DNA of 64,000 nucleotides from the NCBI RefSeq assembly GCF_028278985.1, contig NZ_JANQTA010000004.1, positions 32,334 to 96,333 of the forward strand, written 5' to 3'. Shown here one piece after another: positions 2-62,008 of the stretch (its first letter is position 1; every line of letters starts with the position of its first letter). The notes under the pieces were generated by a model. It searched no databases, was not told the origin of the DNA, and saw only the letters and a list, made by a program, of their open reading frames with translations. The translations under genes and the position numbers were made by a program. Source of the DNA: Candidatus Nitrosopumilus sp. Its GTDB lineage: Archaea > Thermoproteota > Nitrososphaeria > Nitrososphaerales > Nitrosopumilaceae.

Positions 2-310
2 AAATTTGATTTTAAACTTGGAGAAGAAATCAATATTAGAATTATAAATTCAGGAACTATCCCAATAAAATTTTCTGATATGTCATATGGTCTAAGAATT
101 ACTGGATTATCTGGAATTCTAATGTATTCTCCTGTTGCAGCTCAAGCAGAATCCACATTAGTTCCTGGTGATGAAGTTGAATTTTCATGGGATCAAATAA
201 AGAATGATGGTGATGTTGCACTAGAAGGCCTTTACAAAATCTCTGCAAAGGGTTTTGATGAACAGGGCAACACTATTGAAAAATCTACAACTATAACACT
301 TTGGAAATAA
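2..310 (+). CDS. C-terminal part of an unknown, probably extracytoplasmic protein
   Basis: The frame of the 80-310 ORF is open to the window edge (reading KFDFKLGEEINIRI before the internal Met), so this is the 3' end of a longer gene that starts outside the window. The visible part alternates beta-strand-like stretches and ends in a pattern (PGDEVEFSWDQ, then KISAKGFDEQGN) reminiscent of Ig-like or BsuPI-type beta-sandwich domains of secreted proteins. That is a fold guess only; no catalytic motif is visible. The internal ATG at 80 is not a credible start because coding sequence continues upstream. Confidence 0.7.
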   Translation, partial: KFDFKLGEEINIRIINSGTIPIKFSDMSYGLRITGLSGILMYSPVAAQAESTLVPGDEVEFSWDQIKNDGDVALEGLYKISAKGFDEQGNTIEKSTTITLWK

Positions 311-43969: not shown

Positions 43970-44010
43970 GAATCTATTTTGTGAAAATAGTATTTCATAA
44001 TGGTGTATTC

Positions 44011-44043
44011 ATTGTGTTGCATTGTGTTGCTACCTGTATATCT
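44011..44043 (+). promoter_or_regulatory. tandem ATTGTGTTGC element with TATA-like box (site 1)
   Basis: ATTGTGTTGC-ATTGTGTTGC (44011-44030) is followed by TACCTGTATATCT. It is about 100 nt upstream of the zinc-ribbon gene at 44144. One of at least seven related sites in 44-57 kb. Confidence 0.7.
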
Positions 44044-44591: not shown

Positions 44592-45041
44592 TCATTTTAC
44601 AATCATTACAGAACAGTGTGATTTTTGACTGACCCCTTGCGAGATGCTTCCAAGTAATATTTTTTCCAAACCTGTTTTTCCATGTGCACCCATGACGACA
44701 AGATCCATTTTGTGTGATTTTGCAAAAGATGAGATTTCATTTGTTGCTGAAATTACTGGAATAATTTTATGCTTTATTGATAGATCTGTTTTCTTTTTTA
44801 CAGGTTCTATCATTTTGGAAATTTTTTCTTCAGCTGCTTTTTCTTCTTTTTTCATTTTTGGAGACGATGCACTTGCATCATGATACCATGTTCCGCGATA
44901 GGCTGGCTTTGTAATGCATGTCAATACAGTAATGTTTGAATTATATTTTTTTGCAATGTCCACTGCTACATCAAAAGCACGAAATGCATTTTTTGAACCG
45001 TCATAGGGAACTAAAATATCTTTAAAAATTGTAGATGCCAA
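44592..45041 (-). CDS. universal stress protein (UspA family)
   Basis: About 149 residues from TTG 45041 (MASTIFKDILVPYDGSKNAF), placed behind GGAG; the longer start at 45074 is possible. It has the UspA fold pattern: DILVPYDGSKNAFRAFDVAV at the N-terminus and LVVMGAHGKTGLEKILLGSISQGVSQKSHCSVMIVK at the C-terminus. The G-x2-G-x9-G(S) loop (GAHGKTGLEKILLGSIS) indicates an ATP-binding type. It is one of four UspA genes or relics between 44 and 51 kb. Confidence 0.9.
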   Translation of the reverse strand: MASTIFKDILVPYDGSKNAFRAFDVAVDIAKKYNSNITVLTCITKPAYRGTWYHDASASSPKMKKEEKAAEEKISKMIEPVKKKTDLSIKHKIIPVISATNEISSFAKSHKMDLVVMGAHGKTGLEKILLGSISQGVSQKSHCSVMIVK

Positions 45042-45309: not shown

Positions 45310-45852
45310 TCAAATCTTTCGTGACATTTCTGATGCTAGTTGGACCTCTTCAGTTACTTCAAATGCTGTTAGTAGTTCTAACTCCAAATCAGGATGAGAC
45401 ATGATGATCTTGTTTATGCCAATCTCAAATCCCCCTGCTGGAGGGTGTAGCAGCCATTTGAATTGTCCTTTTTCATCCAATTCAGTAGGTATGGCATAGA
45501 TGATCTCTCCTTGAGGTCCAATCAAAGACATGGTTGCAGGTTTGTGGTCTGCACGAACATCCATTGCACCACTGACAAACACTGTCTCGTATGATTTTAT
45601 GCTAGTATCATATGTATGGACATAGTCAGTTTGTGCGTATGCAGGACTAATCATTTGCAAAATACTGAGTTCTGAAGCGGATTCTTCAGAATTTACTCTA
45701 ATTTGCGGTCTGTCTACTGGTGATTTGCTATTTTCCTCAACCATTGCAATCAACATGCTTGCTATCATCAGAATTAACGATGCAATAAAGACTATTTTGA
45801 AATAATCTCCTACACTTGTTTGTTTGCTGAATCGTGTGTTTCTATGTTTCAT
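45310..45852 (-). CDS. membrane-anchored extracytoplasmic hypothetical protein (180 aa)
   Basis: A single TM near the N-terminus (YFKIVFIASLILMIASMLIAM) is followed by a Ser-rich linker and a beta-rich domain (SIKSYETVFVSGAMDV; PATMSLIGPQGEIIYAIPTE; FEIGINKIIMS). This resembles an Ig-like module. The domain would face outside. The gene is preceded on its strand by the variant repeat element at 45889-45915. Confidence 0.75.
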   Translation of the reverse strand: MKHRNTRFSKQTSVGDYFKIVFIASLILMIASMLIAMVEENSKSPVDRPQIRVNSEESASELSILQMISPAYAQTDYVHTYDTSIKSYETVFVSGAMDVRADHKPATMSLIGPQGEIIYAIPTELDEKGQFKWLLHPPAGGFEIGINKIIMSHPDLELELLTAFEVTEEVQLASEMSRKI

Positions 45853-45888
45853 GACAGTATTACGTCATAATTTTATTTTAATTCATGG

Positions 45889-45915
45889 AAAACAATGTCA
45901 CACAATGTGTTGCTG
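45889..45915. promoter_or_regulatory. variant repeat element, type B (site 9)
   Basis: GAAAACAATGTCACACAATGTGTTGCTG, sharing AAAACAATGTC-N-CACAATGT-N-TTGCT with 48040-48066. The right half resembles the TGTGTTGCT end of the tandem element. Confidence 0.5.
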
Positions 45916-46157: not shown

Positions 46158-46310
46158 CTAATCTCCACCTGCATCGCATGCACACGACTGAAATTCATCA
46201 ATTCTGGAACCACAAAGTGGACATTTTTCATTGTATTCTATTTCCCAAGATTCTTTTCCATAAATTAACAAATGATCATTGATTTCGATTGGGATGTCTG
46301 GTCTTTTCAT
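46158..46310 (-). CDS. 50-aa CxxC/CxC mini-protein
   Basis: Not in the ORF track. ATG 46310 reads MKRPDIPIEINDHLLIYGKE, SWEIEYNEKCPLCGSRIDEF, QSCACDAGGD. It holds one CPLCG knuckle and one CAC, enough for one zinc. A tandem-repeat promoter element with TATA-like box in the minus orientation (46333-46360) lies 23 nt upstream, giving a leaderless or short-leader mRNA. Confidence 0.6.
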   Translation of the reverse strand: MKRPDIPIEINDHLLIYGKESWEIEYNEKCPLCGSRIDEFQSCACDAGGD

Positions 46311-46332: not shown

Positions 46333-46360
46333 AGATATACTAGTAGCAACACAATGTAAT
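46333..46360 (-). promoter_or_regulatory. tandem element with TATA-like box (site 2)
   Basis: The minus strand reads GTATTACATTGTGTTGCTAC then TAGTATATCTG. The distal half-repeat is degenerate, the proximal ATTGTGTTGC perfect. It precedes the 46310 mini-gene. Confidence 0.6.
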
Positions 46361-46410
46361 ACTACTCATTTATGAGCGATCTTCCCTTTACTTTCCTTGA
46401 GGTGAAAAAA

Positions 46411-46920: not shown

Positions 46921-46952
46921 TTTGTGTTGCATTGTGTTGCTACTAGTATATC
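46921..46952 (+). promoter_or_regulatory. tandem element with TATA-like box (site 3), orphan
   Basis: TTTGTGTTGC-ATTGTGTTGC-TACTAGTATATCTG, pointing right. Downstream there is only a 10-codon ORF (46976-47008) containing GGAGGTGACC and an internal ATG-GAA-TAT-TAA, then the tail of a minus-strand pseudogene. A small RNA or a lost gene is possible. Confidence 0.6.
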
Positions 46953-47125
46953 TGTAATGATGACCATAATCAATTATGAAAAAATTGGAGGTGACCATGG
47001 AATATTAAATACTAAAGCCTAGTTTTTATTTTTTATATTAATAATACCACCATACACCATTTAATAATGGAACAATTTATTCTCAAAAACATTCCATTTT
47101 ATTTTATTCATAGATTTGAAAAATT

Positions 47126-47555
47126 TTATTTTACTAGTATGATGGGAAGTTTAGTGTTTTGAATAACTCCATACGCAACACTTCCTAGAACTAGTTTTTG
47201 AAGACCTGTTATTCCATAGGAACCAATTACAATAAGATCAATTTTGTTCGGATTAGCAATATCTCAATATTCCATTTGGAATTGAAGAATCAAATTCTAC
47301 ATCAAAATCCAATTGAACTTTTTTGTCTTGTGCAATTTGCATTAACCTGTTGATGGTTTTCGTTGAAAAATCATCCTCGTTTAGAATCTCTTGAATTATT
47401 TTTTTATCAAGAGAGAGATTTTTTGGTTTTTTATGTAATATCGTAAGAAGCATAATTTGAGAATTGAATTTTGGTGCCATCTCGATTGCCTTTTTGAATG
47501 CTTTTCCTGACTGCAGAGATCCGTCAAATGGAACAAGAATTTTCTTAAAAGTCAT
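47126..47555 (-). pseudogene. UspA family gene broken by a frameshift
   Basis: The first frame (MTFKKILVPFDGSLQSGKAF ...) stops at ILRYC near 47256, where GGAATATTGAGATATTGCTAA is off by one base. The next frame resumes DIANPNKIDLIVIGSYGITG, LQKLVLGSVAYGVIQNTKLP and IILVK to TAA at 47126, which is the expected UspA C-terminus with its ATP loop. A single-base insertion (or a two-base loss) restores the full 143-residue protein. A sequencing error is possible. It lies 26 nt after the 47581 UspA gene on the same strand. Confidence 0.8.
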
Positions 47556-47580
47556 TAAATTCTACCTTAACATACTCAAG

Positions 47581-48003
47581 TCATTTAACCAACAAAACAG
47601 GCATTTTTGCCTTGTTCAGTACATAGTCTGATGCACTTCCAACAAAAATTTTCTTTAGCTTACTGGTTCCACGAGCTCCTATTACTAACATGTAAAACGA
47701 ATAGGAATTGGCAAATTTCACAATATCATAACCTGGATCAGATCCATAGACTAGCTTATACTCAAGAGGAATGTCTTTTTTCTTACATTTTTCAACGGCC
47801 GGATCAATAATGTTCTTTTTAATACCTTTCATAATTTTTTCATTAACCACTTTTTTTGAGGCGCCAATAACGATTGAAGGAGAGGCAGTCACAACATGAA
47901 AAAGGAAAAGTGAAACATTTTCATGTTTTGCAATCTCAACTGCTTTGGAGAGCCCCCTAAAGGAATTTGGGGATCCATCTATTGGTACCCGAATTTTTTT
48001 CAT
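47581..48003 (-). CDS. universal stress protein (UspA family)
   Basis: 140 residues from ATG 48003 (MKKIRVPIDGSPNSFRGLSK). The track start 17 codons upstream runs into the variant repeat element and lacks family similarity. VIGARGTSKLKKIFVGSASDYVLNKAKMPVLLVK carries the G-x2-x-x9-G-S nucleotide loop. First gene of a two-UspA unit whose second member is broken. Confidence 0.88.
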   Translation of the reverse strand: MKKIRVPIDGSPNSFRGLSKAVEIAKHENVSLFLFHVVTASPSIVIGASKKVVNEKIMKGIKKNIIDPAVEKCKKKDIPLEYKLVYGSDPGYDIVKFANSYSFYMLVIGARGTSKLKKIFVGSASDYVLNKAKMPVLLVK

Positions 48004-48039: not shown

Positions 48040-48066
48040 AAAACAATGTCCCACAATGTATTGCTA
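48040..48066. promoter_or_regulatory. variant repeat element, type B (site 10)
   Basis: GAAAACAATGTCCCACAATG then TATTGCTAG, matching 45889-45915. It is upstream of the minus-strand UspA; on the plus strand its right part is followed by TGTTTTATC, similar to the TATA-like part of the tandem element. Confidence 0.5.
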
Positions 48067-48110
48067 GTGTTTTATCAATCATGCATGCATACTAATTTTG
48101 AGGTGAAAAA

Positions 48111-48531: not shown

Positions 48532-49059
48532 GTGAAAAAAAAGCAGAGTCAAACAATAACATTCCGATTAGATCCTGAGCTTATTGAAGAAATTAAAAAA
48601 GACGCAGAATTAGAAAAGATTAACGTAAATTCACTAGTCACAAAAATCCTTGCCAATCATATCTTGTGGGAAAGATACGAGCGTAAATTGGGATTACTGC
48701 CAATGACCAAGCCTTTTGTTCAATACTCTATTAACAAAATGAGTGATGAAGAAATTATCCAACTTGCAGAAGAAGTAGAAAAAGACACGTTTTCAGATAT
48801 ATTGAATTTTATGAAAGGTGAATACTCTATAGAGGAATTTATCGAAATTATAAGATCTTGGCTATATGTGGCATGGATGCAACACGATGTAAATTCTGAC
48901 AAATCATGGTACATTTTGAAGATCAACCATGATCTGGGAGAAAAATGGTCATTGTATGTCAAGACACTCATCACTGAGTTGTTTCATGACATTGTTCAAA
49001 AAAGCTTGGATGTACAATCTACAAAAAATAGAATCACATTCAAATTTCCAAAAGATTAG
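48532..49059 (+). CDS. ribbon-helix-helix DNA-binding protein with C-terminal domain (175 aa)
   Basis: GTG start. Residues 1-45 form an RHH (CopG/Arc) motif: SQTITFRLDPELIEEIKKDA then ELEKINVNSLVTKILANHIL, a strand followed by two helices. The following 130 residues are alpha/beta and probably sense a ligand or mediate oligomerisation; the family is not recognised. It sits in the middle of the tandem-repeat promoter cluster, and RHH proteins typically bind short tandem repeats, so it is a candidate regulator of those sites (inference). Confidence 0.8.
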   Translation: MKKKQSQTITFRLDPELIEEIKKDAELEKINVNSLVTKILANHILWERYERKLGLLPMTKPFVQYSINKMSDEEIIQLAEEVEKDTFSDILNFMKGEYSIEEFIEIIRSWLYVAWMQHDVNSDKSWYILKINHDLGEKWSLYVKTLITELFHDIVQKSLDVQSTKNRITFKFPKD

Positions 49060-49147: not shown

Positions 49148-49172
49148 ACATTGTGTTGCTACCAGTATAATC
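49148..49172 (+). promoter_or_regulatory. half-degenerate tandem element with TATA-like box (site 4)
   Basis: TTTACATTGTGTTGCTACCAG then TATAATC. One perfect ATTGTGTTGC; the distal repeat is weak. About 64-90 nt upstream of the zinc-ribbon gene at 49236. Confidence 0.55.
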
Positions 49173-49468: not shown

Positions 49469-49663
49469 CTAGTATCGAGATTTGTTAATAGTGGCAATCT
49501 TTTTTTGTGATCTGGGTTCTTTGAATTTTGTAGCCTGTTTGGCTACCTTGCCTGCAATTTTGAGTATTTTGCCACTTTTCATTGCTACAGTGGAAAGTAC
49601 AGCCCGCATTTTCTGTTCTTTCCTTTGTGCCTCAATTTCTGTCTGGCTTAGCTTTCGTCTCAT
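49469..49663 (-). CDS. 64-aa basic hypothetical protein
   Basis: Strongly basic, helical (MRRKLSQTEIEAQRKEQKMR; KSGKILKIAGKVAKQATKFK), with a KSRY end. It could bind nucleic acid or be a short structural peptide. It is divergent from the UspA at 49855; the tandem element at 49706 lies between them, and the inverted repeat begins just outside its start codon. Confidence 0.5.
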   Translation of the reverse strand: MRRKLSQTEIEAQRKEQKMRAVLSTVAMKSGKILKIAGKVAKQATKFKEPRSQKKIATINKSRY

Positions 49664-49672
49664 GGGATAAAA

Positions 49673-49728
49673 TAGTCAAAAAAGCTATTTGATATTCGTG
49701 TATTCATTGTGTTGCATTGTGTTGCTAT
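49673..49728 (+). repeat. 56-bp inverted repeat, left copy
   Basis: Reverse complement of 52789-52844 with two mismatches in 56 nt. It contains the tandem element (49706-49725). Confidence 0.85.
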
Positions 49729-49737
49729 CTGTATATT
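49706..49737 (+). promoter_or_regulatory. tandem ATTGTGTTGC element with TATA-like box (site 5)
   Basis: ATTGTGTTGC-ATTGTGTTGC (49706-49725) followed by TATCTGTATATT. It is about 130 nt upstream of the UspA-permease operon and in the same orientation. Confidence 0.7.
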
Positions 49738-49854
49738 TGGAATAATTTTCTTTTTGAATCATGAAAGTAAGATTGTTTGATAGTACTAGATCTGGAATTC
49801 TTTTACGACATTTCACATACTATTTTAATTGCGAAATTAGAGGAGTCATTATCA

Positions 49855-50322
49855 ATGTATGAAAAAATCTTAGTACCACATGCAGGCTCTCCTGCAGGGG
49901 ACAAAGCCCTTGAGCATGCTGGTCAAATTGCAAGTACAAATAATTCGGCACTTACTATTTTACACGTAGTTGAACATATTCCAATCCCTCCATCATTATC
50001 TCTGAGTGGAGAAAAAAAACAATTTGCCCAAGATTTAAAGAAAGCACGAGGAGAGATGAAAACACAAATGCACATATTGTTAGAATCAAAAGCAGTAAAA
50101 CTTCGCAAAAAAGGAATTCCTACCAGCATCAAAGTTGTTCATGGTTATCCAGATGAGGAGATTATTCGTATTGCAAATGAAGGAAAATATGACATGGTAA
50201 TAATGGCAAAAAGAAAGAAACTATCTGGAGTAAAAGGCATCTTGAAACTTGGCAGTATTTCAAGAAAAGTACTTGAGAAAATCTTTTGTCCTGTATTGTT
50301 GATAGACGGAGAAAAAAAATAA
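49855..50322 (+). CDS. universal stress protein (UspA family)
   Basis: 155 residues from ATG 49855 (MYEKILVPHAGSPAGDKALEHAG); the 26 residues added in the track do not fit. The C-terminus YDMVIMAKRKKLSGVKGILKLGSISRKVLEKIFCPVLLID has the UspA loop with G-x2-G-x-L-x3-GS. The usual Asp of the N-terminal VPxDGS is His (VPHAGS), a small oddity. The next gene begins 2 nt after its stop. Probably part of a four- or five-gene operon with the permease. Confidence 0.9.
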   Translation: MYEKILVPHAGSPAGDKALEHAGQIASTNNSALTILHVVEHIPIPPSLSLSGEKKQFAQDLKKARGEMKTQMHILLESKAVKLRKKGIPTSIKVVHGYPDEEIIRIANEGKYDMVIMAKRKKLSGVKGILKLGSISRKVLEKIFCPVLLIDGEKK

Positions 50323-50324
50323 TC

Positions 50325-50525
50325 ATGTATCAAAGATTGATAGAAAGAGTTGGTTCTACTGGTAAGGTAATTGAGGATTATGGCGGATACGAGATAATTG
50401 TAACAGATAACAAAGAGTTTCCATGGTTTGATGTTTTTAATTTATTAGTTGAAAATGGATTCCAAATCTGGATAGTAAAAGAGAATGATCATTTACAGAT
50501 AATGTCAAAGCCTGAGGTTAATTGA
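50325..50525 (+). CDS. 66-aa hypothetical protein between UspA and permease
   Basis: ATG 50325 directly after the UspA stop. Short alpha/beta sequence (MYQRLIERVGSTGKVIEDYG; YEIIVTDNKEFPWFDVFNLL) of unknown family. Its TGA overlaps the permease ATG, so it is coupled to both neighbours and may be a soluble accessory of the transporter. Confidence 0.7.
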   Translation: MYQRLIERVGSTGKVIEDYGGYEIIVTDNKEFPWFDVFNLLVENGFQIWIVKENDHLQIMSKPEVN

Positions 50526-51940
50526 TGATAAAAAATCAGTACCTGTATCCAATCATCCTAGCTGCCATTGCAATTACTGTTAGTTTTGCTGGATTAAACA
50601 CTGCACAGATTGCTTCTGTAACTGTTTTTGCATCTTTAATTGTAGGAACTCTACTATTTTGGAGATTTAGGCTTGCATTTGCTCTAGTTGGAATAGCTGT
50701 CATGTTGGGATTAGGACTACTTGATACAGATACCATGATTGAGTTTGCAGGATTTGATATGATCTTATTTTTGGTAGGAATGATGATAGTTGTTGGTTTT
50801 CTAGAAGAGAAAAAATTCTTTGAGCATCTTCTAGGAAAAATCATGAAAGGGGTTGGAAAGAATCCAATCAAATTAGTTGTTGTTTTGATGTTAATGTCTG
50901 CACTATTTGCTGCACTTGTAGATGAAGTTACATCAATTTTGTTTATGACTGCTACTGTCTTGCATCTTACAGGAAAGCTCAGAATCAGTGCTATTCCATT
51001 AGTTATGATGACAGTATTTGCAACAAACATTGGAAGCAGTGCTACCGTAGTTGGTAATCCTGTTGGTGTCTTGATTGCAATGAGGGCAGATCTTACATTC
51101 ATGGAATTTCTTAGATGGGCCACTCCTGTCTCAATTGCCGGTCTGGCTGTGGCAGTACCACTAAGCTTGCTTTACTTTAGAAAATACATTCATCAGATGG
51201 GAGTTGCATTAAAAGGACAATCTGATGGAAAGGCTACTGACGAATCTGAATCTCTTCTCTTGGAGGAAACCTCAGATGACTCCAAAGAAAAACAGGACTT
51301 TAGAATTCCTTGGATAATATTCATAGGAACAATTGCAGCCCTTGTTGCACACAGTCCAATGGAGGAGGCACTTGGATTAGAGAAAAATGTGCTTCTTCCC
51401 GGAGTAGCTTTTGCAGCTGCAGGAATTGTACTATTCCTTAATCACAACAAGGCACGAGAGCTAGTAGAACGAAGAGTTGACTGGTGGACGCTGGCATTCT
51501 TCATCTTCTTGTTTGCATCAGTTGGAACAATGAAAATGTTGGGTGTCACAACAGTTCTGGCACAGGGAATGTATGACATTAGCGGAAATGATGAATCCGT
51601 ATTGTATTTCATTTTTGTTCCCATAACAAGCATCTTAAGTGCGTTAATGGATAACGTCTTGGCAGTGGCTACATTCATTCCGGTAGTTCATGAATTTGGA
51701 GAAATGGGTGTACACAACTACCCGTTCTGGTGGGGAATGCTGTTTAGTGGAACATTTTTTGGCAATCTCACTCTAATTGGCAGTACTGCAAATATTGTCG
51801 CAATAGGAATGCTTGAAAGACGCAAACGTGGTCACATTACACTCAAAGAATGGATTAAACCGGGTGCAGTAATCTCAGTACCAACCATGATTCTTGCAGG
51901 AATTCTGGTATATCTTCAAATTCCTCTGATGCCCGTATGA
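50525..51940 (+). CDS. ArsB/NhaD-type ion transporter permease
   Basis: 471 residues from ATG 50525 with 11-12 TM helices: YPIILAAIAITVSFAGLNTA, FDMILFLVGMMIVVGFLEE, LMSALFAALVDEVTSILFMTA, VFATNIGSSATVVGNPVGVL, FFIFLFASVGTMKMLGV, LSALMDNVLAVATFIPV and NLTLIGSTANIVAIGMLE. These are the ion-transporter (IT) superfamily motifs (GSSATVVGNP and STAN in the two halves). A charged cytoplasmic loop (ESESLLLEETSDDSKEKQD) splits the halves. Na+/H+ antiport is the leading guess; arsenite or another anion is possible. Co-transcribed with UspA. Confidence 0.85.
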   Translation: MIKNQYLYPIILAAIAITVSFAGLNTAQIASVTVFASLIVGTLLFWRFRLAFALVGIAVMLGLGLLDTDTMIEFAGFDMILFLVGMMIVVGFLEEKKFFEHLLGKIMKGVGKNPIKLVVVLMLMSALFAALVDEVTSILFMTATVLHLTGKLRISAIPLVMMTVFATNIGSSATVVGNPVGVLIAMRADLTFMEFLRWATPVSIAGLAVAVPLSLLYFRKYIHQMGVALKGQSDGKATDESESLLLEETSDDSKEKQDFRIPWIIFIGTIAALVAHSPMEEALGLEKNVLLPGVAFAAAGIVLFLNHNKARELVERRVDWWTLAFFIFLFASVGTMKMLGVTTVLAQGMYDISGNDESVLYFIFVPITSILSALMDNVLAVATFIPVVHEFGEMGVHNYPFWWGMLFSGTFFGNLTLIGSTANIVAIGMLERRKRGHITLKEWIKPGAVISVPTMILAGILVYLQIPLMPV

Positions 51941-52260
51941 AAATATTGGTTATCGTATTATTTGGAATTTTATTTTTAGCATTATCTAATACAAGTTTTG
52001 CTGAAATCTTTGAAGTAAAACATCTTAAGACAATCAAAATGGAATATTCTCCAAATTGGTACAGTTATAACTTTGCAATATGTGCAAACCAAACTAACAT
52101 TCCTCCATTTGAAATAAGAGTTGTATCTGATTTTGAACAAATAACAATTGTATATGATAAAACGATCTCTAACGGTAATTGTGTATCTTTTGGTGCTATG
52201 ATTCATTCAAACAATGCTGATTCAATTTATACAGAAATAGTGACCTCACCTACAAATTAA
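51937..52260 (+). CDS. small secreted protein (107 aa)
   Basis: Cleavable signal peptide (MKILVIVLFGILFLALSNTSFA) then about 85 residues, probably one beta-sandwich (NWYSYNFAICANQTNIPPFE; IRVVSDFEQITIVYDKTIS) with two Cys that may form a disulfide. The start overlaps the permease stop by 4 nt, so it is in the same operon. Function unknown; it could be an external partner of the transporter. Confidence 0.7.
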   Translation: MKILVIVLFGILFLALSNTSFAEIFEVKHLKTIKMEYSPNWYSYNFAICANQTNIPPFEIRVVSDFEQITIVYDKTISNGNCVSFGAMIHSNNADSIYTEIVTSPTN

Positions 52261-52309
52261 TTCCTAAATGTAACTCAAAGGTTTTTAGTCAAAACAAACC
52301 AATGTACGC

Positions 52310-52726
52310 ATGGCTGAATCAAAGACCAAACCTGATAAAATTTCTTTATGTGACATTATGAAAAATAACACCTCAGACATAATTCAAAGCATGGAGTGCC
52401 AAATGCCCGTAATTGTACAAAAATACTCTGATCTTTATACTCAATACCTGCACATGCTTGATGATGCTAGTAGTGCATGTTATGTTGCAGAAAAAGAATT
52501 TTTTGATAAGTTAAATATTGATCAAGGAGTTTTAAGACAGATCCAAGAATTTTCTGAAACCATGAAAAAAAACCATATACAGAACGTAGAAATGTCCACT
52601 AAAATGTTTGATGCGTATGTCAAAATGCGAATTTCTACGATAAAGTCTTTTGACACTTATTTGCATATTTTAGGCAATATTTACGCACAAAATTATGCAA
52701 CTTACAGAAAATTCCTTCAGAACTAA
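52310..52726 (+). CDS. helical hypothetical protein (138 aa)
   Basis: Soluble, all-helical, Met-rich (CDIMKNNTSDIIQSMECQMP; YLHMLDDASSACYVAEKEFF; FSETMKKNHIQNVEMSTKMF), reminiscent of phasin-like or helical bundle proteins. Separate promoter likely (49-nt gap). The inverted-repeat copy lies 63 nt past its stop. Confidence 0.7.
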   Translation: MAESKTKPDKISLCDIMKNNTSDIIQSMECQMPVIVQKYSDLYTQYLHMLDDASSACYVAEKEFFDKLNIDQGVLRQIQEFSETMKKNHIQNVEMSTKMFDAYVKMRISTIKSFDTYLHILGNIYAQNYATYRKFLQN

Positions 52727-52788
52727 CCTCTGCTTGCATTTTGATAAATCTAATGATTTGTTTGCTGAGACTTGTCGCTTAGGAACAA

Positions 52789-52844
52789 ATAGCAACACAA
52801 TGTAACACAATGAATACACGAATATCAAATAGTTTTTTTGACTA
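52789..52844 (-). repeat. 56-bp inverted repeat, right copy with tandem element (site 6)
   Basis: Inverted partner of 49673-49728. Contains GCAACACAATGTAACACAAT (52792-52811), the tandem element on the minus strand with one changed base. TATCTGTATATT is not preserved (TATTTGTTCC), so promoter activity is doubtful. No gene supported at 52845-53000; ORF 52810-53001 starts within the repeat and looks spurious. Confidence 0.8.
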
Positions 52845-53006
52845 CAGTACTGTATGCAAGTCGTTCAGAAACAAAGAATACACAAATGTGTATGCGGAAA
52901 CGCGTTTGATTCAGACGTGGAATTACGAGAACATAAAAGATGGTTGTGCATCTATGACAGCTCCATCTAATTTCTTTTTTTCTAACGTCTTATTTTTTTG
53001 AATTTT

Positions 53007-53237: not shown

Positions 53238-54125
53238 ATGTTAACACAAATACATCAAACTTGCAATCATAAAATTTTGATATCTGACGAAAATGCAGGT
53301 GAAAAAATTTGCAAAACCTGTGGACAAGTTGTGGTTCAAAATATGGTGGATTATTCCACTGATGGATTTACAGATAATTCACAAAATGTTAGAGTGGGGC
53401 CAAAATCAACTTTAACTATTCATGATGGTGGCCTATCTACTATTATCGCTAAATCTAATTTTGACTCTAGCGGGAAACCCATTTCGCACAAATTCAAAGG
53501 TCAGTTAAACAGAATGCGCATATGGGATTCTAGGAGCAGGACTGGGTCCACTTCCAACCGAAGTTTGATGGTTGCACTATCTGAGATTGGAAAACTAAAA
53601 GAAAAAATGTCCTTATCTGATGCCATAGTAGAGCGATCTGGGTATTTTTATCGAAAAGCAGTAGAGAAAAAATTGATTCGTGGCAGAACAGTAAAAGCAG
53701 TTGCAGGAGCATGTGTATATGCAGCCTGCAGAGATCTGGGGACTAGCAGAACCATCAAAGAAATTGCTAAGCAGATTCATGAACGACAAAATACCATAGC
53801 TAAGGCATATCGTCTTCTTTTTCAGAAACTATGCCTTGAAGTTCAAATATCTGATCCTACATCTAGCATTGTGCGTTATTGCAACAATCTAAAAACACCT
53901 GAAACTATCAAACGTGATGCATTATTAATTTTGGACAAATTAAAAGCAACGGGAGTTGTTGCAGGCAAGAAACCTAATTCTGTAGCCGCCACTGTAATTT
54001 ACATGGCATGCATCAAAAACAACAAAAACATATCTCAATCTAAAATCTCAAAGACGTCAGGAATTACAGAAATTACAATTAGAACTAGACTCAAAGAGTT
54101 TACCCAATACGTATCATTAAATTAG
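53238..54125 (+). CDS. tfb: transcription initiation factor TFB, paralogue 1
   Basis: 295 residues: N-terminal zinc ribbon (CNHKILISDENAGEKICKTCGQVV), the B-reader/linker (DGGLSTIIAKSNFDSSGKPI, RMRIWDSRSRTGSTSNRSLM), then two cyclin-like repeats (VKAVAGACVYAACRDLGTSR; NSVAATVIYMACIKNNKNIS) ending in a helix-turn-helix (ITEITIRTRLKEF) that reads the BRE. The first zinc half is C-x2-H rather than C-x2-C, a common variation. Thaumarchaea carry several TFBs, thought to direct different promoters; another is at 61112. Confidence 0.95.
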   Translation: MLTQIHQTCNHKILISDENAGEKICKTCGQVVVQNMVDYSTDGFTDNSQNVRVGPKSTLTIHDGGLSTIIAKSNFDSSGKPISHKFKGQLNRMRIWDSRSRTGSTSNRSLMVALSEIGKLKEKMSLSDAIVERSGYFYRKAVEKKLIRGRTVKAVAGACVYAACRDLGTSRTIKEIAKQIHERQNTIAKAYRLLFQKLCLEVQISDPTSSIVRYCNNLKTPETIKRDALLILDKLKATGVVAGKKPNSVAATVIYMACIKNNKNISQSKISKTSGITEITIRTRLKEFTQYVSLN

Positions 54126-55373: not shown

Positions 55374-56030
55374 ATGTATGGTATTCTTTCATTTGTCTTC
55401 ATGCTGTTATCTGTTGGAATACTATTTGGTTTTTCTGTAAATGCTGAAGTAAATGAAATAACAAAAATTCAGTTTGGTGCTGAATCAAAAAATAATATTT
55501 CTCACATTCCTTACAATAACATATGTGCCCCAGGATTTGTTGCGCTTGAAAACATTTGTGTATTAAATGACCGCTGCGGTCCAGGAATTTATCCAGGAAA
55601 AATATGTGAGGTTAATGGAGTCCCGGAGCCATATTTGAGGCCACTGCAACAAAAGCATGCTGGAATCTCTGTAGATGGTATCATCTGTGCTGAGAATAGA
55701 GCTCTGCTGTTTAGAGAATATAGCACTGCCCCATATTGTGTTTTTCCAGAATCAGTTGGCAAATTAAGAGATAGGGGATGGCAAGAAGATATTCCGGTAA
55801 TTGCTTGCACTCTTGAATTTTCCCCTGTATGTGGACTAGATGGTTTAACATACAACAATCAATGCAAATTAAAAAATGCCCAAATGATTCAGGCATATTC
55901 TGGCCAATGTAGTAATTCAAAAATTACAAATTTTGAAGAATGCGTTTCTGCGGGAAATCTTGTCAAAAAAACATTTCCACGACAATGTGCGACCGATGAC
56001 GGCAAGAACTTTGTAGAGTCCATTAACTAA
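55374..56030 (+). CDS. secreted Cys-rich protein with Kazal-type domain
   Basis: 218 residues with a signal peptide (MYGILSFVFMLLSVGILFGF). Two Cys-rich segments follow (CAPGFVALENICVLNDRCGP; IYPGKICEVNG), then a Kazal/FS-I domain (CTLEFSPVCGLDGLTYNNQC...YSGQC) with the signature PVCGxDGxTYxNxC. Kazal domains inhibit serine proteases in eukaryotes and bacteria; a role against exogenous proteases is inferred. The C-terminal 30 residues add two Cys. Confidence 0.8.
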   Translation: MYGILSFVFMLLSVGILFGFSVNAEVNEITKIQFGAESKNNISHIPYNNICAPGFVALENICVLNDRCGPGIYPGKICEVNGVPEPYLRPLQQKHAGISVDGIICAENRALLFREYSTAPYCVFPESVGKLRDRGWQEDIPVIACTLEFSPVCGLDGLTYNNQCKLKNAQMIQAYSGQCSNSKITNFEECVSAGNLVKKTFPRQCATDDGKNFVESIN

Positions 56031-57283: not shown

Positions 57284-57316
57284 TGATATACTAGTAGCAA
57301 CACAATGCAACACAAA
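57284..57316 (-). promoter_or_regulatory. tandem element with TATA-like box (site 8)
   Basis: Minus strand: TTTGTGTTGC-ATTGTGTTGC-TACTAGTATATC. It is 23 nt upstream of ATG 57261 and heads the frameshifted gene and RHH operon. Confidence 0.7.
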
Positions 57317-60900: not shown

Positions 60901-61092
60901 ATGTTGCTTAAATCTTTGAACAACGATATAGATGCAATGATGGTTGATTCGTGCATAAAGTACGGAACAGGAATGGAAGTTGAAAAAAACTGTAGCGTCT
61001 GTCTAAATCATATTCCGTTTTTTTACACTAGCTATGGGCACATAAACATGAGCACACACATTGCCAATGCAGTATGTCTGTACTTTCAGTAG
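60901..61092 (+). CDS. uncertain 63-aa ORF upstream of TFB
   Basis: ATG 60901 reads MLLKSLNNDIDAMMVDSCIK and includes ...NCSVCLNH... No ribosome-binding site; the palindrome sits on its start, so it would have to be leaderless. It could be the leader of the TFB transcript instead. Confidence 0.3.
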   Translation: MLLKSLNNDIDAMMVDSCIKYGTGMEVEKNCSVCLNHIPFFYTSYGHINMSTHIANAVCLYFQ

Positions 61093-61111
61093 ATACTCAC
61101 GGAGATGCAAA

Positions 61112-62008
61112 ATGACCTCTTCCTGTTCCCAAAAACCGTTTGGCTGCATGCACGTTTCGTCAGTATTTGATGATGTTAAAGGGGAGATGGTTTGCAAAAA
61201 TTGCGGGCAAGTACTCGAACAAAATACAATTGATCTATCACATGATGGATTTTCTGAGAACGTACCAAATTCCAGAACAGGGCCTAGAATAACCAATAGA
61301 ATCCATGATGGTGGACTATCTACGGTCATGGGAAGTTCAAATTATGATGCCAGTGGCAATCCAGTTCCCTTGAAACTCAGAAAATCATACAGTCGAATGA
61401 GAACATGGGACTCAAGAAGCAAGACAGGCTCATCTGGCAACAAGAATCTGATTGTTGCATTAAATGAGATGGAAAAACTGAGAAATAAGATGGCTTTGTC
61501 GGATGCCATCGTTGAGCGAGCCTCATACTTGTACAGGAAGGCTCTTGAGCACAACCTTGTACAGGGCAGATCAGTTAGGAGTATGACTGGGGCGTGTATT
61601 TATGCATCATGCAGAGAACTTGAAACGGTTAGGACTCTAACAGATATTTCAAAGCATCTCCAGGAAAAAAAGAGTTCTGTTTCAAGAAGTTACAGGATTC
61701 TGTCCAGAAGCATGGACCTTGATATGCCCGTTGCCGATCCTGTCAACAGCATTATAAAATTCTCAAACAATTTGGAACTCCCTGAAAAAATAAAGAGAGA
61801 TGCAATAGAAATATTCAATTCTTTGAAGAAGAAGAAGATCATAGCAGGAAAAAAGCCTGATTCAGTTGCAGCTGTAACCATATACATGGCATGTCTTCTT
61901 AACAACAAAGAGATCTCTCAATTAAGAATATCCAGAATCTCTGGAATCAGTAATGTAACCATTCGAAATAGATTAAAGGAATTCAAAAAGCATGTTCCTT
62001 TGATTTAG
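61112..62008 (+). CDS. tfb: transcription initiation factor TFB, paralogue 2
   Basis: 298 residues from ATG 61112, preceded by GGAG; the track start 17 codons earlier is unsupported. Zinc ribbon (CMHVSSVFDDVKGEMVCKNCGQVL), B-linker (RMRTWDSRSKTGSSGNKNLI), two cyclin folds (VRSMTGACIYASCRELETVR; DSVAAVTIYMACLLNNKEIS) and HTH (ISNVTIRNRLKEF). By eye it is closely similar to the 53238 paralogue along its whole length. Its 5' region has the palindrome at 60880, so it may be separately regulated. Confidence 0.95.
   Translation: MTSSCSQKPFGCMHVSSVFDDVKGEMVCKNCGQVLEQNTIDLSHDGFSENVPNSRTGPRITNRIHDGGLSTVMGSSNYDASGNPVPLKLRKSYSRMRTWDSRSKTGSSGNKNLIVALNEMEKLRNKMALSDAIVERASYLYRKALEHNLVQGRSVRSMTGACIYASCRELETVRTLTDISKHLQEKKSSVSRSYRILSRSMDLDMPVADPVNSIIKFSNNLELPEKIKRDAIEIFNSLKKKKIIAGKKPDSVAAVTIYMACLLNNKEISQLRISRISGISNVTIRNRLKEFKKHVPLI

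What the first reader, a model, noticed from the sequence alone, without database searches (positions are those of the whole stretch)
49673..52844. 56-bp near-perfect inverted repeats flank the UspA-permease operon
49673-49728 and 52789-52844 are reverse complements with two mismatches. Each contains the tandem promoter element. They enclose UspA, a 66-aa protein, the ArsB/NhaD permease, a secreted protein and a helical protein. Possible meanings: an invertible segment, the scar of a mobile or duplicated module, or promoter duplication by inverted transposition. The right copy has lost its TATA-like box, suggesting the left is the ancestral promoter.
Basis: partly seen in the sequence, partly recalled or inferred. 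Interest (0 to 1): 0.65.

Follow-up and report, generated by a model that had tools for sequence, protein, structure and literature searches.

The report
Duplicated two-way promoter in ammonia-oxidizer gene cluster
The two mirror-image 60-base sequences around this archaeal stress-protein and transporter operon are two copies of one two-way gene switch, each controlling different neighbours, so they look like an ordinary (though apparently undescribed) shared promoter element and not a DNA segment that flips.

Summary
The inverted repeat is real: 60 nt, 3 mismatches (49673-49732 / 52785-52844); surrogate sequences reach 21-29 nt. The interpretation changes.

The arms belong to a family of tandem 10-bp elements (ATTGTGTTGC repeated) clustered at 44.0-57.3 kb of this Nitrosopumilaceae genome, with three more copies elsewhere. 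Each element looks like a two-way promoter. Inward, a TATA box precedes an ATG 45-47 nt from the core (17 of 23 sites, p about 5e-16). Outward, a TATA-like stretch precedes a divergent start codon at exactly 42-43 nt (5 of 8 window elements, p about 2e-8). Both arms obey the outward rule: left to a small basic protein (49663-), right to an overlooked 38-aa mini zinc-finger gene (52854+).

In the genome's second copy of the locus (contig C23) and two relatives, one element sits between this zinc-finger gene and the UspA-permease operon. Here the element exists twice: the left copy serves the operon, while the right kept only its zinc-finger side.

UspA-permease orientation relative to the neighbouring ribbon-helix-helix (RHH) gene is identical in the four other loci where both genes are present. 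No recombinase, transposase or target-site duplication was found. Best reading: inverted duplication of a regulatory module, probably bound by the RHH protein; a standing invertible switch is unlikely.

The parts
49673..49732 (+). Left arm: 60-bp two-way promoter/operator module
   Evidence: Inverted repeat with 52785-52844, 57/60 identical
49707..49725 (+). Tandem 10-bp element TTGTGTTGCATTGTGTTGC in the left arm
49731..49738 (+). Inward TATA box (GTATATTT) of the left arm, in front of the UspA-permease operon
   Evidence: sequence; the TATA position is conserved at other elements
49761..49862 (+). Leader ORF (33 codons), ATG 45 nt from the element core, stop overlapping the UspA start; the usual start point of these elements
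   Evidence: sequence; ATG at +45..47 in 17 of 23 sites
49469..49663 (-). Divergent gene of the left arm, 64-aa basic protein; start 43 nt from the tandem element
   Evidence: conserved in 74 of 95 genomes of the genus, second copy at C8:86914 of this genome
49855..50322 (+). UspA, first main gene of the operon
   Evidence: Pfam Usp 7e-30
50325..50525 (+). 66-aa protein p66, conserved between UspA and permease in relatives
50522..51940 (+). CitMHS-type ion transporter (permease)
   Evidence: Pfam CitMHS 1e-48; 84-88% identical orthologs in the same order
51937..52260 (+). Small secreted-type protein (hydrophobic N-terminus)
   Evidence: no Pfam family
52310..52726 (+). Helical protein, 138 aa
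   Evidence: ortholog next to the LPG_synthase_TM-family gene and RHH gene in L130
52785..52844 (-). Right arm: second copy of the module, inward TATA lost, outward (zinc-finger) side kept
52792..52810 (-). Tandem 10-bp element of the right arm (TTGTGTTACATTGTGTTGC)
52821..52830 (+). Outward TATA-like stretch AATATCAAAT in front of the zinc-finger gene (mirrored on the minus strand at 49687-49696)
   Evidence: sequence; TATA-like stretches at the same place at other outward starts
52854..52970 (+). Mini zinc-finger gene (38 aa, CxC...H-type), divergent partner of the right arm, start 43 nt from the tandem element
   Evidence: homologs paired with an element at 44.0 kb, C23, G085 and L020
53007..53025 (-). 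Further element without inward TATA; outward start codon at 42 nt (53068, 36-aa membrane protein)
43981..44037 (+). Third long copy of the module (88%), divergent mini zinc-finger gene on the minus strand at 42 nt
46922..46940 (+). Tandem element; outward minus gene at 43 nt, inward ATG at +45
46345..46364 (-). Element with degenerate upstream repeat and TATA, in front of the 46158-46310 minus gene
49150..49159 (+). Single core with TATA, in front of the zinc-ribbon gene at about 49236
57297..57315 (-). Tandem element with TATA; inward ATG at +45
48532..49059 (+). RHH (ribbon-helix-helix-type) protein, candidate regulator of the elements
   Evidence: Pfam CopG_antitoxin 3e-4 and HicB 5e-4, both below cut-off; clear orthologs lie beside elements in relatives
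53238..54125 (+). TFB (transcription factor B) paralog in the cluster, rival candidate for reading the element
   Evidence: Pfam TFIIB 1.5e-36

Best explanation
The two arms are two copies, in opposite orientation, of one about 60-bp two-way promoter/operator module that recurs through a local regulon of a Nitrosopumilaceae archaeon. The module is a tandem pair of 10-bp sites flanked on each side by a TATA-like box, each feeding a transcript that starts at or very near its start codon. The left copy drives the UspA-p66-permease operon inward and a small basic protein outward. The right copy has lost its inward promoter and drives only the mini zinc-finger gene outward. The ancestral locus had one module between the zinc-finger gene and the UspA operon; here the module was duplicated in inverse orientation together with, or captured by, the relocated zinc-finger gene, and the halves were divided between the copies. 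The likely regulator is the adjacent RHH protein, two dimers on the 10-bp repeats (one helical turn apart), possibly recruiting or excluding TBP/TFB. Shown: repeat family, fixed spacings on both sides, TATA loss, conserved adjacency and gene order in relatives. Inferred: transcription start sites, the duplication mechanism, RHH binding.
For: Family of elements in one 13-kb cluster plus C23 and C8. Outward ATG at 42-43 nt in 5 of 8 window elements including both arms (p about 2e-8) and at 42 nt on C23, in L131 and in L020. Inward ATG at +45..47 in 17 of 23 sites, absent in the right arm. Mini zinc-finger gene paired with an element at 44.0 kb, right arm, C23, G085 and L020. The spacer beyond the tandem site is conserved in three other species at about 78% over 50 bp. 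Unchanged RHH > UspA > permease order in the four other loci holding all of them. RHH ortholog (at least 60% identity) and exact element coincide in 10 genomes, each present in 11 of 95 (p about 1e-11), lying side by side; the eleventh RHH genome, G052, has variant elements.
Against: No transcript or binding data. The RHH assignment rests on sub-threshold Pfam hits; the fold prediction is of low confidence (pLDDT 64) and gave no significant PDB match. Spacing and co-occurrence p-values treat related loci as independent, the spacing classes were chosen after seeing the data, and co-occurrence partly reflects simple linkage. The left arm's outward gene (64-aa protein) is a different family from the zinc-finger gene, so the simple 'one module split in two' story needs a gene replacement or conversion at the left.
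Confidence: 0.72

Rival explanations
1. Invertible (phase-variable) segment: the operon flips between the arms, switching promoters between neighbours.
For: Near-perfect inverted arms 3 kb apart. Flipping the segment would restore the zinc-finger/element/UspA adjacency seen on C23, in G085 and in L020.
Against: The orientation of UspA-permease relative to RHH is the same in the window and the four other loci holding both. No serine recombinase found in the genome; tyrosine recombinases only on contigs C3, C4 and C31. The arms carry a conserved promoter, which explains them without recombination. The longest exact identity is 29 nt, short for homologous recombination (own knowledge).
Confidence: 0.07
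2. A past, one-off inversion between two already existing element copies produced the present order; no flipping today.
For: Neighbouring genes (zinc finger, TFB, LPG_synthase_TM family, DUF6659) have changed side or orientation relative to RHH-UspA compared with L020 and L130, so the cluster has been rearranged; elements in both orientations are natural crossover points.
Against: RHH, element, UspA, permease keep the relatives' order and orientation, so this particular segment need not have been inverted; inverting the neighbour is equally possible.
Confidence: 0.15
3. Terminal inverted repeats of a mobile element carrying the operon.
For: Inverted repeats bounding a gene block; a second locus with the same operon exists on C23 (permease 87%).
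Against: No transposase or integrase inside, no target-site duplication. The C23 operon has only two elements, both in the same orientation and both upstream of UspA, and no bounding inverted pair. The arms extend into conserved promoter spacer.
Confidence: 0.05

Closest known systems
Archaeal divergent promoters with a shared operator (e.g. TrmB/Lrp-type bidirectional control; own knowledge)
   Same: One intergenic operator with a TATA box on each side serving two divergent genes
   Different: Here the operator is a 10-bp direct tandem repeat, reused about eight times within 13 kb and duplicated with its spacer
RHH repressors on tandem repeats (MetJ met-boxes, omega heptads, Arc, CopG; own knowledge)
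   Same: Short direct repeats next to the promoter, RHH-like gene adjacent to its sites
   Different: Repeat unit of 10 bp, protein has about 130 extra C-terminal residues, binding untested
TFB-RF1 / alternative TFB control at weak BREs (PMC5937170, PMC2121645, abstracts only)
   Same: Sequence just upstream of TATA decides promoter class; TFB paralogs at 53238 and 61061 in the window
   Different: No evidence here that a TFB paralog reads the element
Invertible promoter segments (fim, hin; own knowledge)
   Same: Inverted repeats around a block
   Different: No recombinase nearby, one orientation in relatives, promoters lie in the repeats themselves

Membership tests
Invertible (phase-variable) segment | Inverted repeats flank the segment | tested here: met
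   60 nt, 3 mismatches
Invertible (phase-variable) segment | Cognate recombinase nearby | tested here: not met
   No resolvase-family match in the genome; integrase family only on C3, C4, C31
Invertible (phase-variable) segment | Both orientations exist | tested here: inconclusive
   Across loci of several species only one orientation relative to RHH is seen (four other loci); reads of this population not available
IS / MITE-type mobile element | Target-site duplication at the ends | tested here: not met
   Flanks gggataaaa / cagtactg differ
IS / MITE-type mobile element | Transposase or dispersed copies | tested here: not met
   No transposase in the block; long copies only in this cluster
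Divergent promoter/operator module | TATA and start codon at fixed distance on both sides of the site | tested here: met
   Outward ATG 42-43 nt, inward ATG +45..47 from the core
Divergent promoter/operator module | Transcription actually starts on both sides | not testable with these tools
   needs transcription start mapping
RHH-controlled regulon | Adjacent gene encodes an RHH-fold DNA-binding protein | tested here: inconclusive
   Sub-threshold CopG/HicB matches; low-confidence model, no PDB match
RHH-controlled regulon | Regulator and sites co-occur across genomes | tested here: met
   10 genomes shared, each feature in 11 of 95, physically adjacent, so partly simple linkage
RHH-controlled regulon | Protein binds the repeats | not testable with these tools
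   needs gel-shift or ChIP

The most novel reading that the evidence does not exclude
An undescribed Nitrosopumilaceae regulon built on a reusable two-way promoter: a 10-bp tandem operator read by a lineage-specific RHH protein with a sensor-like C-terminal domain, firing leaderless mini-ORF leaders (internal GGAGGTG, then a hairpin) in front of stress and transport genes, and spreading by local duplication of the whole module.
Probability: 0.3. Interest if true: 0.6.

Novelty: new member of a known kind. Interest (0 to 1): 0.38.

Why it matters
It turns a possible DNA switch into a concrete regulatory prediction for ammonia-oxidizing archaea, where few operators have been assigned to regulators: which genes share control, where transcription should start on both strands, and which neighbour protein should bind. 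It also shows how a divergent promoter can be copied and its two halves divided between genes.

Tried and rejected
Chance repeat: rejected by surrogates. Mobile-element ends and target-site duplication: none. Recombinase-driven inversion: no candidate enzyme near. Known RNA family in the cluster: Rfam none. RHH fold by AlphaFold and Foldseek: inconclusive; no solved relative by sequence. Paper searches for Nitrosopumilus promoters, RHH regulators or leaderless transcripts found nothing on this element by title and abstract; no paper was read in full. Assembly artefact through the repeat: unlikely, because the longest exact identity (29 nt) is shorter than usual assembly k-mers (inference).

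Full report
OBSERVATION. Thirty Markov surrogates of the window reach only 21-29 nt at the same tolerance. The repeat is real.

THE ARMS BELONG TO A FAMILY. The tandem TTGTGTTGC-A-TTGTGTTGC in each arm recurs at 44012+, 46922+, 49707+, 52792-, 53007- and 57297-, with partial copies at 46346- and 49151+. In the whole genome there are only three more near-copies, two on C23 and one on C8. A third long copy of the full arm lies at 43981-44037 (88%). In other species of the genus the core is followed by a TATA box, TTGTGTTGCTAC(Y)(A)NTATATC. The spacer beyond the tandem site is also conserved, about 78% over 50 bp, in G002, G012 and G084. The 60 bp are therefore best read as a conserved promoter module, not the end of an element.

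TWO-WAY ANATOMY. On the inward side a TATA box starts a few nt after the core and an ATG follows 45-47 nt from the core start in 17 of 23 sites (p about 5e-16), the spacing expected if transcription starts at the ATG (inference). On the outward side an ATG opening a reading frame of at least 28 codons lies exactly 42-43 nt from the tandem site in 5 of 8 window elements (p about 2e-8), and at 42 nt on C23, in L131 (G085) and in L020, each with a TATA-like stretch 20-30 nt before it. The p-values are approximate: the distance classes were read off the data and related loci are not independent. Both arms obey the outward rule. The left arm points at the 64-aa basic protein (49663-), a gene conserved in 74 of 95 genomes of the genus and present again on C8. 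The right arm points at an overlooked 38-aa mini zinc-finger gene at 52854+. The right arm has neither inward TATA nor inward ATG: it lost one half.

COMPARISON WITH RELATIVES. The zinc-finger gene has relatives at 44.0 kb and on C23 of the same genome and in G085 and G084; an L020 relative was seen by its position. Where checked (44.0 kb, C23, G085, L020) it stands divergent from an element. On C23, in G085 and in L020 the order is RHH > < zinc finger | element > small membrane protein > (DUF6659 >) UspA > p66 > permease >; L020 lacks DUF6659 at that place. G098 (L130) has RHH > zinc ribbon > DUF6659 > UspA > p66 > permease >. In all four the orientation of UspA-permease relative to RHH is that of the window. 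L023 and L047 also keep UspA-p66-permease in order, but no RHH gene was found on those stretches. In the window the zinc-finger, membrane-protein and DUF6659 genes lie downstream of the operon. The simplest account is that one ancestral element between zinc finger and operon became two inverted copies when the zinc-finger gene was relocated or duplicated; each copy kept the half that its remaining neighbour needs. How the left copy came to face the 64-aa gene at the same 43-nt spacing is not explained; the spacing itself is a property of the whole family.

REGULATOR. The gene at 48532-49059 has weak RHH similarity (CopG_antitoxin 3e-4, HicB 5e-4, both below cut-off). Clear orthologs (at least 60% identity; next best 35%) occur in 11 of 95 genomes of the genus; the exact element occurs in 11, and 10 have both (p about 1e-11), with the element directly downstream of the gene or close by. 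G052, the RHH genome without an exact element, has variant elements there. This is linkage as well as co-occurrence. Direct 10-bp repeats suit a pair of RHH dimers on one face of the helix (inference). The fold prediction did not settle the domain. The TFB paralog at 53238 is the rival reader.

AGAINST SWITCHING OR MOBILITY. No resolvase match in the genome, integrases only on other contigs, no transposase in the block, no target-site duplication, one orientation across loci. Reads could not be examined, so rare inversion is not excluded; a past inversion in this rearranged cluster is possible.

VERDICT. Observation confirmed; explained as a duplicated two-way promoter of a local regulon. The regulon itself appears undescribed in the papers searched (titles and abstracts), which gives it moderate interest; the inverted repeat as such is ordinary.

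Noticed in passing
L131, L132, L133, L134, L136, L139, L020, L129, L130 downstream of the element; window 46976-47060 (+): Leaders begin with a mini-ORF of about 10 codons containing GGAGGTG (an SD match) or a close variant, followed in most by a hairpin whose stem sequence differs between loci; 5 of 10 fold at z of -3 or lower. Looks like an attenuator or small RNA. In the window copy at 46.97 kb no hairpin stands out and no gene follows on that strand.
   Followed up: partly
window 49761-49862 (+): Leader ORF between the left arm and UspA overlaps the UspA start codon, suggesting translational coupling.
   Followed up: no
window 45880-45915 and 48040-48070 (-): Variant tandem sites ACATTGTGKGACATTGTTTTC upstream of the minus-strand genes starting at 45852 and 48003 (the latter a UspA).
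   Followed up: no
window 44592-45026, 47253-48003, 49855-50322: Four Usp genes or fragments within 6 kb; 47253-47555 matches only the first 50 residues of the Usp profile and looks truncated.
   Followed up: partly
G000:C23:1-4200 (L129): A second, more canonical copy of the whole RHH/zinc-finger/UspA/permease locus in the same genome (permease 87%, RHH 78%).
   Followed up: partly
G018:C1:164489-165262: Permease ortholog with three in-frame stops: a decaying copy of the operon in another species.
   Followed up: no
window 53238-54125 and 61061-62008: Two TFB-like genes in the window; the first, inside the cluster, is confirmed by Pfam TFIIB, the second was recognised by eye from its similarity to the first.
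   Followed up: no
window 55374-56030: Secreted-type protein with a Kazal protease-inhibitor domain (Pfam 1.5e-7), unusual in archaea (own knowledge).
   Followed up: no
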